39,406 nt of DNA from a virus. Where the stretch lies: IMG/VR virus record IMGVR_UViG_3300033134_000007, positions 1 to 39,406 of that record, one strand, 5' to 3'. Of this stretch, positions 21,109 to 26,164 are shown piece by piece. Below the pieces are notes generated by a model. That model was not told the DNA's origin. It was given only the letters and a program-made list of their open reading frames with translations, and made no database searches. Both the position numbers and the translations under genes were made by a program. Positions within the stretch are counted from its first letter, which is position 1. Every line of letters begins with the position of its first letter.

Positions 21109-21738
21109 ATGACGACACTGAAGGACGCCTTTCTCGCCGCCGGTTTCCTCGCGCCGGGCGAGCGGCTGCGCGAGATCGCCATCAGGGCGATGAGCCAGCA
21201 CGCCACCAGCAATGAGGCTGCCATCGAGGCCGTGCTCAAGGCCGTGCGCCAGGATCTGGCGCTCACCTGGGCGCTGTTCGCGCCGTATGACGCCGTTGCT
21301 GTCAAGCGGCTGTTTGCCGAGGTGCGCCATGAGTTGCGCCAGGACGCCCGATCGCGCGACGAGGGCCGCGCCGTGCATGGAAACCAGCTGCCGGATGCCC
21401 AAAGCGCGCGTCAGGGAGGGGGCCAGCCATCACTTGCGGGCCACATAGCCCATGCCCCCTCCCGCCCCATCACGCTGGAGCAGCGCGCGGCGAAGGCGCG
21501 GACGGCCGAGGTGATCCGCATGTCGCTGCTCGATACCGTCACCATCGACGGCCGGCCGATCGGTGACTGGCAGGCGGGCGCGGCGCGGGCCTGGGCGCGG
21601 GCCACCGGGCGGCATGTGCGCTGGGTCGAGATGATGACCGCGAACATGCCACCCGACGATCCGATCCGGCGCTGGCTGACGCCCGAAGACGCGCAATCGC
21701 TGTGGCAGCGCGCCGCGCAGGAGGGCGACAATGCGTAA
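21109..21738 (+). CDS. Hypothetical early protein, 209 aa
   Basis: From ATG 21109 with GGGGGGGAA just upstream. N-terminal helices (TLKDAFLAAGFLAPGERL, AIEAVLKAVRQDLALTWALF) precede a Gly/Gln-rich linker. The C-terminal half includes RTAEVIRMSLLDTVTIDGRP, WARATGRHVRWVEMMTANMP and RRWLTPEDAQSLWQRA. The last part resembles small phage proteins near replication genes, but I cannot name a family. Its 3' end carries the AGGAGG ribosome-binding site and overlaps the start of the Tas-like gene by 8 bases. Confidence 0.65.
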   Translation: MTTLKDAFLAAGFLAPGERLREIAIRAMSQHATSNEAAIEAVLKAVRQDLALTWALFAPYDAVAVKRLFAEVRHELRQDARSRDEGRAVHGNQLPDAQSARQGGGQPSLAGHIAHAPSRPITLEQRAAKARTAEVIRMSLLDTVTIDGRPIGDWQAGAARAWARATGRHVRWVEMMTANMPPDDPIRRWLTPEDAQSLWQRAAQEGDNA

Positions 21739-22939
21739 AAAGAAATCACCCATCGCGGGCCCTGGTGCTGCTGAAAACCATGTGGAGGCTGCCCGCGAGG
21801 AGACGACGGCCAAGTCGGCCCTGGAAACCTTTTATGCCTTGCCGTCGTCTCCACCACCCATCGCGGGCCAGTCAGGGATTGAAAGCCACTCTACTCCTGC
21901 CCGCGCGGAGACGACGGCCGATGTTCCGGTGGAATCCAAGTCCGTGGTGCCGTCGTCTCCACCAACAGAGATCGCGGGCCAACATGAGCATGAAAACCTC
22001 TCAGCCACTGCCCGCGAGGCGGAGGGGGCCATTGCTCGCGTGAAAACCACCGGACACTTTCCCCCTCCGCCGCCCGCCATCCTCGAACTGATCGACCTGC
22101 AGCGGCAGCGCGTCCACGCCATCAAAGCGCAGTCCTTTGGCGACCGCACATGCGATTCCTACGTCGCGCATTTCCTCGGCTACCACAGCGACATGCCCGA
22201 GGCCGAGGGCAAGGCGCTGTTCAGGCAGGCCGCCGAGATGCGCGCCGGCGTCGAGAAGCAGTTGAAAAAGGTCCAGAAAGCCGGGGGCCTCGTGCAACGT
22301 GAAGACCAGGCTGAGGTTGCCCCCGGCCCGGGCGGAGAGGGCCACATTTCCCGAGAAAGCCACATCATGCCTGCCCTCTCCGTCTGCCGCCCGATCATCC
22401 TCAACACCATCCTGGCCCGCGCCGGCTGGGATGCGCTGCGCAAGACCGCCGAGGCGCGCATGTGCGCGATCGCCGGGCAGTTTCCGGTGTGGCCCCGCGC
22501 GGCCGAGGTCGCGGGCTTTGCCGAGCTTGGGCTGGCCGTCATCGTGGCCGAGGCCGGTAACGATCTCACCGCCTATCCGCACGCCATGCACCTGTGGAAG
22601 CGGCTCGGCCTCGCCCCCTACAAGGGCCGGGCCATGTCGCAATGGCATGGCAAGGATTTGACCGTCGAGGAGTGGTCCGCCCAGGGTTACAACGGCAACC
22701 GGCTGGGCCGGCTGGTGGGCGTGGTCGGCACGCCGCTGTTCATGATGAAGGACAGGCCCGGGGGCTACGGCGCGGTGTATGCCGCGCGGCGGGCGCATAC
22801 CGCGCTGACGCACCCGGATTGGACCAAGGCGCACAGCGACAATGACGCGCGGCGGATCATGCTCAAGCAGCTCGTCGCTGACCTGTGGGGGTGGTGGCGG
22901 GACTGCGCGCGGGCGGCCGATGTCAGCCAGGCTGCGTGA
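21731..22939 (+). CDS. Tas-like protein (IS110/Nop-type domain) containing its own guide-like stem-loop arrays
   Basis: The ORF is 402 aa from ATG 21731 with a strong AGGAGG 6 nt upstream. The C-terminal 150 residues (AAEVAGFAELGLAVIVAEAG, then YPHAMHLWKRLGLAPY, ARRAHTALTHPDWTKAH, and ARRIMLKQLVADLWGWWRD) resemble the C-terminal domain of IS110-type transposases and phage proteins often annotated as transposases. No RuvC or HNH motif is seen, so it would be a nuclease-free TasA-like member of the TIGR-Tas class. The N-terminal helical part starts near ILELIDLQRQRVHAIK (residue about 117). Residues 8-114 and about 184-218 are encoded by the stem-loop blocks and are low-complexity. GTG 22040 is a possible internal start, inside the sixth loop. 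RNA-guided DNA binding is inferred from family knowledge. Confidence 0.72.
   Translation: MRKKKSPIAGPGAAENHVEAAREETTAKSALETFYALPSSPPPIAGQSGIESHSTPARAETTADVPVESKSVVPSSPPTEIAGQHEHENLSATAREAEGAIARVKTTGHFPPPPPAILELIDLQRQRVHAIKAQSFGDRTCDSYVAHFLGYHSDMPEAEGKALFRQAAEMRAGVEKQLKKVQKAGGLVQREDQAEVAPGPGGEGHISRESHIMPALSVCRPIILNTILARAGWDALRKTAEARMCAIAGQFPVWPRAAEVAGFAELGLAVIVAEAGNDLTAYPHAMHLWKRLGLAPYKGRAMSQWHGKDLTVEEWSAQGYNGNRLGRLVGVVGTPLFMMKDRPGGYGAVYAARRAHTALTHPDWTKAHSDNDARRIMLKQLVADLWGWWRDCARAADVSQAA
21753..22071 (+). ncRNA. TIGR-like array, block 1: six stem-loops with 30-nt guide-like loops
   Basis: Six consecutive hairpins. Stem arms: 21753-21760/21791-21798; 21799-21810/21841-21852; 21861-21868/21899-21906 (7 of 8 pairs); 21907-21918/21949-21960; 21972-21979/22010-22017; 22018-22028/22061-22071. 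Two stem types alternate (TCGCGGGC and GGAGACGACGGC); the sixth has a different stem (GGCGGAGGGGG) that is still complementary. Each loop is 30 nt, except that the sixth gains 2 nt from a final mismatched pair. All are 12 nt, core, 11 nt. Cores in order: GAAAACC, GGAAACC, GAAAGCC, GGAATCC, GAAAACC, GAAAACC. Left halves start with C and end with T; right halves end with T. Halves are otherwise unrelated, like guides. Three stem bases each side plus the loop give 36 nt, the length reported for tigRNAs. Confidence 0.82.
22280..22384 (+). ncRNA. TIGR-like array, block 2: two further stem-loops inside the tas-like gene
   Basis: Unit 7: arms 22280-22288/22319-22327 (GCCGGGGGC, perfect), loop 22289-22318, core GAAGACC at 22301. 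Unit 8: arms 22331-22342/22373-22384 (GGCGGAGAGGGC with one G-T wobble), loop 22343-22372, core GAAAGCC at 22355. Both loops are exactly 30 nt with the 12-7-11 layout of block 1, although both stems are new sequences. They encode the linker between the N-terminal helices and the Nop/IS110-like domain. Two more units obeying the same rule, 200 nt away and with new but complementary stems, argue against chance. Confidence 0.8.
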
Positions 22940-25377: not shown

Positions 25378-25584
25378 ATGACCTGGCGGGGGATGACCTG
25401 GCGGGGGGATGAATTGACAGGGGTTGGGCGCCACCAGGCGCGGGATGCCGAGATCGTCCGGCGCTATGCGGCCGGCGGCGTCACGCTCAGCCAGTTGGGC
25501 CGCGCGTATGGCAAGACTGACGCGCGGATCTGGCAAATAATCAACAAGGCGCGACGACAGCAGCAGAGGGCCCACGATGCTTGA
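25378..25584 (+). CDS. Small helix-turn-helix protein
   Basis: A 68-aa frame from ATG 25378. ATG 25393 is also possible because the start lies in a tandem 15-bp repeat (GGATGACCTGGCGGG twice), and TTG 25414 is a third option. The core ARDAEIVRRYAAGGVTLSQL, then GRAYGKTDARIWQIINKARR, is a sigma-region-4 / resolvase-like HTH. It overlaps the NusG-like gene by 8 bases, so the two are probably co-expressed regulators of late transcription. Confidence 0.65.
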   Translation: MTWRGMTWRGDELTGVGRHQARDAEIVRRYAAGGVTLSQLGRAYGKTDARIWQIINKARRQQQRAHDA

Positions 25585-26164
25585 CGAAAACGCGAGTGCG
25601 GGCCTAGCAGAGTCGCGCGGGACGATGCGCCAGCCGGACGATACGGCGCACCGGCCCTGCGGACGCCTGCAATGGCACGTCGTTTCCTCCCTCCCCAACA
25701 AGCAATTTGCCGCCGAGGCCTCGCTCGCGGCGGATGGCTGGCGGGTTTACCACCCGCTGCACCTGCATCGCGTGCGCGGCCATGGGCTGCGGATTGTGAG
25801 CCTGTTTCCTGGCTATTTGTTCGTGCTGTTCGATGTCACCGGTAGCGATTGGCCGCGGATCTGTCGCGCCCGCGGTGTCGCTGCGCTGCTCGGCCCGCCC
25901 GGCCGTCCCTCGACAGTCCCGGCCGGTCTGGTCGAGCAGTTGCTCGCACGCACGAGCGCCCGGCGCGTGGTAGACGACCCGCTCGCCCCCGACGGGCACG
26001 TCTACCTACGCCCGGGCGCCTCTGTGGCGGTGCTGCAGGGCCCCCTGGCCGGGCTGGAGGGGATTTGCCGGCTGTCGGCGCCGGAGCGCGTGCAGGTGCT
26101 GTTCCAGCTGCTGGGCCGCGAGCTCGCGGTGGAACTGCTGCCGCAGCAGGTTATGGCGATTTAG
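25577..26164 (+). CDS. NusG/RfaH-like transcription elongation or antitermination factor
   Basis: A 195-aa product from ATG 25577. Residues about 30-120 form an NGN domain: RLQWHVVSSLPNKQFAAEASL, WRVYHPLHLHRVRGHGLR, VSLFPGYLFVLFDVTGSDW and ICRARGVAALLGPPG. A KOW-like C-terminal part has GASVAVLQGPLAGLEG and an HVYLRPG strand. NusG paralogs bind RNA polymerase and suppress pausing and termination, often operon-specifically. Placed immediately before the terminase and the very long virion operon, it is a natural late-gene antiterminator. TAG ends it; readthrough would reach TAA after 13 codons. Confidence 0.82.
   Translation: MLDENASAGLAESRGTMRQPDDTAHRPCGRLQWHVVSSLPNKQFAAEASLAADGWRVYHPLHLHRVRGHGLRIVSLFPGYLFVLFDVTGSDWPRICRARGVAALLGPPGRPSTVPAGLVEQLLARTSARRVVDDPLAPDGHVYLRPGASVAVLQGPLAGLEGICRLSAPERVQVLFQLLGRELAVELLPQQVMAI

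What the first reader, a model, noticed from the sequence alone, without database searches (positions are those of the whole stretch)
21731..22939. Guide-array-like stem-loops (TIGR-like) embedded in frame inside a Tas/IS110-like phage gene
Seen: eight stem-loops, all with 30-nt loops laid out 12-7-11, and a 7-nt core near GRAANCC (one GAAGACC). Stems vary but remain paired, including three entirely new stems (units 6, 7, 8). Left halves begin with C and right halves end with T. Loop halves are otherwise unrelated, as programmable guides would be. 36 nt result if three stem bases per side are kept. Known: TIGR-Tas systems have arrays processed to 36-nt tigRNAs with two spacers, used by Nop-domain Tas proteins related to IS110. 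Inference: this is a nuclease-free, TasA-like system. The odd point is that the array lies in the coding sequence, behind an AGGAGG site, with the repeat steps of block 1 (108 and 111 nt) keeping frame.
Basis: partly seen in the sequence, partly recalled or inferred. Interest (0 to 1): 0.97.

Follow-up and report, generated by a model that had tools for sequence, protein, structure and literature searches.

The report
Guide RNA array inside its effector gene
A phage carries a set of RNA guides of the recently described TIGR-Tas kind, and instead of sitting beside the gene for the guide-binding protein the guides are written, in reading frame, inside that gene and inside the gene before it, so one stretch of RNA appears to serve as both protein message and guide source.

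Summary
The units follow CCA-N9-UG-N4-CCA-N9-UG, the box C/D grammar published for TIGR-TasR, with two 9-nt spacers. The gene product is a nuclease-less TasA: its family profile matches solved TasR and TasH, and its model matches TasH, TasR and IS110 recombinases. TIGR stem-loop arrays with TasA are known (Faure 2025, PMC12045711). New, as far as I could read, is the location. About 40 of 72 non-redundant TasA loci have units inside the tasA open frame. In 13 loci they sit at the tip of the coiled coil, and in 15 in the linker of a conserved upstream gene. All 51 of these internal units are in one frame (24/24 and 27/27). Between close relatives, flanks are 78-95% identical, box bases 100%, spacers 17-28%: hypervariable guides in conserved coding sequence. 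The array-coded peptide is predicted disordered; the Nop fold is intact. Transcription, tigRNA processing and targets are untested, and no target was found. Best reading: the partner-tasA mRNA doubles as pre-tigRNA. Verdict: new variant of a known kind.

The parts
21109..21738 (+). conserved partner gene directly upstream of tasA (209 aa, two domains with a linker); function unknown
   Evidence: profile of 11 homologues finds it upstream of tas in 47 of 72 non-redundant loci; no Pfam, PHROG or PADLOC match for the window protein, and none above cut-off for homologues tested
21414..21463 (+). guide unit 0, in frame inside the partner gene linker; spacer A GCCATCACT, spacer B CATAGCCCA
   Evidence: strict grammar and 10-bp stem; partner-gene units lie in the same frame in 15 loci, 27 of 27
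21719..21724 (+). AGGAGG ribosome-binding site, 6 nt before the tasA ATG
   Evidence: sequence; SD-like motif at 29 of 35 overlapping starts
21731..22939 (+). tasA, 402 aa including array-coded segments; ATG overlaps the partner stop by 8 nt
   Evidence: family profile vs TasR E 9e-20 and TasH E 1.6e-9; phrog_4285 E 1.3e-6; fold
21753..21798 (+). guide unit 1; A TGGTGCTGC, B TGTGGAGGC
21799..21852 (+). guide unit 2; A AGTCGGCCC, B TTTATGCCT
21862..21905 (+). guide unit 3; A GTCAGGGAT, B CTCTACTCC
21907..21960 (+). guide unit 4; A ATGTTCCGG, B AGTCCGTGG
21972..22017 (+). guide unit 5; A ACATGAGCA, B CTCAGCCAC
22018..22071 (+). guide unit 6; A TTGCTCGCG, B CCGGACACT; edge box D is TT instead of TG
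22079..22279 (+). first part of the Nop coiled coil (model residues about 117-183)
   Evidence: pLDDT above 90 over most of helices 115-148 and 157-183
22280..22327 (+). guide unit 7, at the coiled-coil tip; A CGTGCAACG, B GGCTGAGGT
   Evidence: internal units 24 of 24 in frame 0 over 13 loci
22329..22386 (+). guide unit 8, at the coiled-coil tip; A CATTTCCCG, B CATCATGCC; core box D is AG instead of TG
22365..22936 (+). second coiled-coil half and C-terminal Nop/IS110-like domain (residues 212-402)
   Evidence: pLDDT mostly above 90; VIA-align Z 14-15 to TasH and TasR

Best explanation
This is a phage TIGR-TasA system of the stem-loop type whose guide units are written in frame inside the tasA gene, at its N-terminus and at the tip of the coiled coil, and inside the linker of the gene upstream. 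Shown by sequence: each unit is CCA-N9-UG-N4-CCA-N9-UG closed by a stem; the spacers are hypervariable; the surrounding gene is one open frame, and its Nop fold is intact; the array-coded peptide is linker-like and predicted disordered. Inferred: the partner-tasA mRNA is also the pre-tigRNA. Units fold; TasA made from the same message binds the paired box C/D motifs; a host RNase trims the stems to roughly 36-nt tigRNAs with two 9-nt spacers. The TasA dimer with one tigRNA then binds an 18-bp DNA site (spacer A followed by the reverse complement of spacer B) without cutting, and blocks or regulates a competing element or a host gene. Inferred consequence: guides and effector come from one transcript, and maturing a guide destroys that copy of the message, which would limit TasA by negative feedback. 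Translation of the array would also shield the operon from Rho-dependent polarity.
For: Grammar: 493 hits on the tas strand and 13 on the other over 72 loci without requiring a stem; stem pairs 2-9 then covary (pair 4: 443 Watson-Crick against 151 expected) with four pair types. With a stem required: 595 against 9 over 88 loci. Guide character: L043, L044 and L045 at the same coiled-coil sites have flanks 78-95%, box bases 100%, stems 83-100% and spacers 17-28% identical; 528 of 595 guides are distinct, and only one pair of non-redundant loci shares any (two guides). Translation: 24 of 24 coiled-coil-tip units in 13 loci and 27 of 27 partner-gene units in 15 loci are in frame 0 without requiring an open frame. 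Frame 1 has a stop in 407 of 517 units. Where the tasA ATG overlaps the partner stop, any array between is in frame, 14 of 14 loci; intergenic arrays go with a later tas start. The window has no ATG, GTG or TTG between 22040, inside unit 6, and the coiled coil. Protein. Several origins or losses of internal arrays: 5 changes on the tree, 3 forced by starred branches.
Against: No transcript or small-RNA data. No target found: no excess of A.rcB matches over control arrangements among fetched loci; no convincing self-target; two guides without an 18-nt match in the phage collection; two of three guides without a match in viral contigs, the third with two unrelated matches at chance level. Units 6 and 8 each break one box base. 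In the predicted MFE of block 1 the identical stems pair across units. Feedback and polarity roles are untested.
Confidence: 0.84

Rival explanations
1. Ordinary TIGR-TasA array: only the RNA matters, and the open frame over the N-terminal array is a by-product of high G+C and few stops; TasA really starts downstream of the array.
For: In several relatives (L033, L034, L058, L072, L073) arrays are intergenic and tasA starts after them. N- and C-terminal units occur in frames 0 and 2, and frame 2 rarely has stops (57 of 517).
Against: It cannot explain units at the coiled-coil tip and in the partner linker, where both flanks are one protein: 24/24 and 27/27 in frame 0. The start/stop overlap of 8 nt precedes the array in window, L042-L045 and L047.
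Confidence: 0.08
2. Selfish palindromic elements inserted in frame in coding genes (like Rickettsia palindromic elements) without guide function.
For: In-frame palindromic insertions in protein genes are known (PMC10969869), and the homologous partner gene of L021 lacks units.
Against: Within the fetched windows the units cluster at and beside tas and its partner, lie on the tas strand (595 against 9), keep a 30-nt loop with box bases while 18 internal bases are random between relatives, and match the TasR RNA grammar.
Confidence: 0.04
3. RNA hairpins that only regulate translation or transcription of the operon (attenuators), not guides.
For: Stable hairpins in a phage operon next to replication and antitermination genes.
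Against: Regulatory hairpins have no reason for fixed 9-nt hypervariable segments bounded by CCA/UG, nor for up to about 35 units per locus.
Confidence: 0.04

Closest known systems
TIGR-TasA with stem-loop array (Faure et al. [quoted passage not shown]
   Same: Nuclease-less Nop protein; [quoted passage not shown] phage location
   Different: [quoted passage not shown] here units lie in frame in tasA and in a second gene. The pages read do not mention in-gene arrays; supplements were not readable
TIGR-TasR, TasH (PDB 9mty, 21kl)
   Same: UG...CCA grammar with 9+9 nt spacers (TasR), homologous Nop domain
   Different: No RuvC or HNH domain here; long stems replace the short edge repeat
IS110 / IS621 bridge-RNA recombinases (PDB 8wt6)
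   Same: Same C-terminal fold, Z about 12; Pfam Transposase_20 above cut-off in relatives L033 and L063
   Different: No DEDD catalytic domain, no bridge RNA; array of many guides
TnpB and its omegaRNA (PMC10278001)
   Same: Guide RNA cut out of the effector's own mRNA
   Different: One RNA, not an array of complete guides inside the frame; unrelated protein; TnpB cuts the RNA itself
Rickettsia palindromic elements (review PMC10969869)
   Same: Palindromic segments read in frame within protein genes
   Different: No spacer/box grammar, no effector, spread over unrelated genes

Membership tests
TIGR-Tas (stem-loop type, TasA) | Nop-domain Tas protein related to TasR/TasH/IS110 | tested here: met
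TIGR-Tas (stem-loop type, TasA) | No nuclease domain (TasA) | tested here: met
   profile aligns from TasR residue 62 on; residues before the coiled coil are array-coded and low-confidence; no nuclease family match
TIGR-Tas (stem-loop type, TasA) | Tandem units with two 8-12 nt spacers between box C (CCA) and box D (UG) | tested here: met
   two of nine units break one base of a box D
TIGR-Tas (stem-loop type, TasA) | Variable but palindromic stems flanking each unit | tested here: met
TIGR-Tas (stem-loop type, TasA) | Array adjacent to, not within, the tas gene (true of the published examples; not a stated definition of the family) | tested here: not met
   units in frame inside tasA and the partner gene
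TIGR-Tas (stem-loop type, TasA) | Array expressed and processed to unit RNAs bound by Tas | not testable with these tools
   needs RNA-seq
TIGR-Tas (stem-loop type, TasA) | Guide-directed DNA binding through both spacers on opposite strands | not testable with these tools
   no target recognised
IS110 transposase | DEDD/RuvC-like catalytic N-terminal domain | tested here: not met
   absent from the ORF

The most novel reading that the evidence does not exclude
A dual-use message: the same nucleotides are translated as linkers of an RNA-guided effector and its partner and are excised as programmable dual-spacer guides, so that making a guide consumes the effector's mRNA. The phages diversify the guides freely while selection keeps frame, stop-freedom, stems and boxes; all 51 units inside the coiled-coil tip or partner linker use the frame that reads as a hydrophilic G/A/P-flanked linker.
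Probability: 0.7. Interest if true: 0.9.

Novelty: new variant of a known kind. Interest (0 to 1): 0.83.

Why it matters
Guide arrays known to me are non-coding. Here arrays of complete guides sit within conserved coding sequence of the effector itself, in many phages, with near-random spacer identity between relatives whose genes are otherwise alike. That makes three open TIGR questions testable: how tigRNAs mature (mRNA cleavage against translation), how spacers are exchanged (replacement in phase without loss of frame), and what TasA without a nuclease does. It also means gene callers hide such arrays: a search restricted to intergenic DNA misses them, and the grammar given here (C-CN-N9-TG-N4-CCN-N9-T-G with a stem) finds them.

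Tried and rejected
Close relatives in phage records and plasmids: one weak phage hit, none in plasmids. Single-sequence search of solved structures: nothing; the family profile was needed. Relatives found by the portal protein carry no tas. Rfam: only a weak 'sar' match outside the feature.

Targets: self, other loci, phage collection and viral contigs. A 17/18 match of a guide of L033 in L034 is at chance level.

Frame counts of units that merely lie inside an open frame (101/3/63) were not used as proof, since an open frame excludes stops by definition; I relied on units placed by flanking protein domains.

The model of the partner protein had not finished, so its fold is unknown.

Full report
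CHECK. Written out, each unit reads stem-CCN-N9-TG-N4-CCN-N9-TG-stem. In the published TasR structure both repeat types start with UG and end with CCA, with a Watson-Crick pair between them, and the spacers are 9 nt (PMC12045711). Chance gives 0.12 strict units per strand; the window has 7 and 0.

PROTEIN. The window ORF alone gave only phrog_4285 'transposase' (E 1.3e-6). Its C-terminal part found two homologues in viral contigs. A three-sequence alignment found ten viral loci (eight of them new) and three in Aminobacter, Mesorhizobium and a Bauldia MAG, and a 12-sequence alignment 80 loci, the list being capped. A profile of 51 members hits TasR 9mty at E 9.1e-20 and TasH 21kl at 1.6e-9. The AlphaFold2 model of the full ORF has low-confidence residues 1 to about 110 and about 184-211, which are largely the array-coded ones, beside confident coiled-coil helices and a confident C-terminal domain. 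VIA-align gives TasH Z 14.9, TasR 14.0, ISCro4 12.4, IS621 12.0, then Prp31 and Nop5 at about 7. The protein therefore belongs with TasA: a Nop domain without RuvC or HNH.

ARRAYS IN RELATIVES. Over 88 loci, 595 units lie on the tas strand and 9 on the other. Without any stem requirement, 493 against 13 grammar hits lie near tas in the 72 non-redundant loci. Among the 493, positions 2-9 of the flanks pair far above independence with several pair types, which is covariation free of selection for stems. A second unit type with N8-N10 or N13 between the core boxes and the same 9-nt spacers serves loci without 30-nt loops.

IN-GENE LOCATION. 39 of 72 non-redundant loci have units inside the tasA open frame. 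An open frame excludes stops, and frame 1 carries a stop in 407 of 517 units, so I counted only units placed by flanking protein domains. Within 240 nt before the C-domain, that is at the coiled-coil tip, 24 of 24 units in 13 loci are in frame 0. A partner gene precedes tasA in 47 loci. Between its first and last domain residue, 27 of 27 units in 15 loci are in frame 0, and in no locus is the partner split between frames. Relatedness lowers the effective number (the tree needs 5 changes for internal arrays, 3 forced), but a by-product would not give 51 of 51. Frame 0 reads about G-G-x5-[ED]-x-[QH]-x3-A-P, mean hydropathy -0.75; frame 2 reads through L/M/V-K (-0.13). A flexible hydrophilic linker is a plausible reason for the frame choice (inference).

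STARTS. In the window and L042-L045 and L047 the tasA ATG overlaps the partner stop by the same 8 nt, ahead of the array. In all 14 loci with an overlapping start and N-terminal units, every unit between is in the tas frame. In L033, L034, L058, L062, L068, L072 and L073 arrays are outside the frame and tasA starts later. L027 and L028 show the same for the second unit type: their tas ORFs overlap both neighbours while carrying arrays. L027 also has in-frame stem-loops in its partner gene that L028 lacks.

HYPERVARIABILITY. At the two coiled-coil sites of L043, L044 and L045 the flanks are 78-95% identical in DNA, the six box bases 100%, stems 83-100%, spacers 17-28%, about random. Unit 8 across six phages has two pairs with changes on both sides and a covariation score reached by 3 of 500 shuffles. 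L044 and L045 still share two guides in their N-terminal arrays.

MECHANISM. Shown: grammar, frame, variability, homology, fold. Inferred: one transcript yields TasA and guides; TasA binds box C/D; a host nuclease matures the guide (Faure et al. report that Tas is needed for processing but does not cut); the DNA target is spacer A followed by the reverse complement of spacer B. I derived this order from the 8-nt 3' overhang and the C-5 rule of TasR. Without a nuclease the effect should be occlusion or bending of DNA, as those authors suggest for TasA. Feedback by consuming the message and protection from polarity are proposals; the operon lies upstream of a predicted antiterminator gene (25577-26164).

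LIMITS. No RNA data. No targets: A.rcB matches among fetched loci do not exceed control arrangements; database probes of a few guides gave nothing beyond chance. Supplements of the TIGR paper could not be read, and preprints are not held; I can say only that the text read does not describe in-gene arrays.

VERDICT. A TIGR-TasA system by every tested protein and RNA feature, with arrays embedded in frame in two genes: new variant of a known kind.

Noticed in passing
window 21109-21738; L021 7224-7865: The partner gene of the window has no Pfam, PHROG or PADLOC match and precedes tasA in most loci; a homologue in L021, a phage related by its portal protein, has no tas and no units nearby, so the gene exists outside TIGR loci. 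Its function may bear on what TasA does.
   Followed up: partly
L027, L028, L065, L080, L082, L083, L091, L095, L096: A second unit type with a longer loop repeat (N8-N10 or N13 between the core boxes) but the same 9-nt spacers, also found inside tas open frames.
   Followed up: partly
L044 4842, 4949 and L045 4788, 4949: Two guides are identical between these phages while the coiled-coil guides differ completely: guide exchange seems to differ between array positions.
   Followed up: no
L063 5679-7134: A long downstream array (more than 20 units) is spanned by successive overlapping open frames without an obvious gene.
   Followed up: no
window 25577-26164: Predicted transcription antiterminator (phrog_6386) between the replication-type gene (23568) and the terminase (26592) of this P22-portal-like phage.
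   Followed up: no
L033 5741 and L034 6307: 17 of 18 match of an L033 guide (A.rcB) in the related phage L034, at a place with no counterpart in fetched L033 DNA; such a match is at chance level for the number of guides tested.
   Followed up: partly
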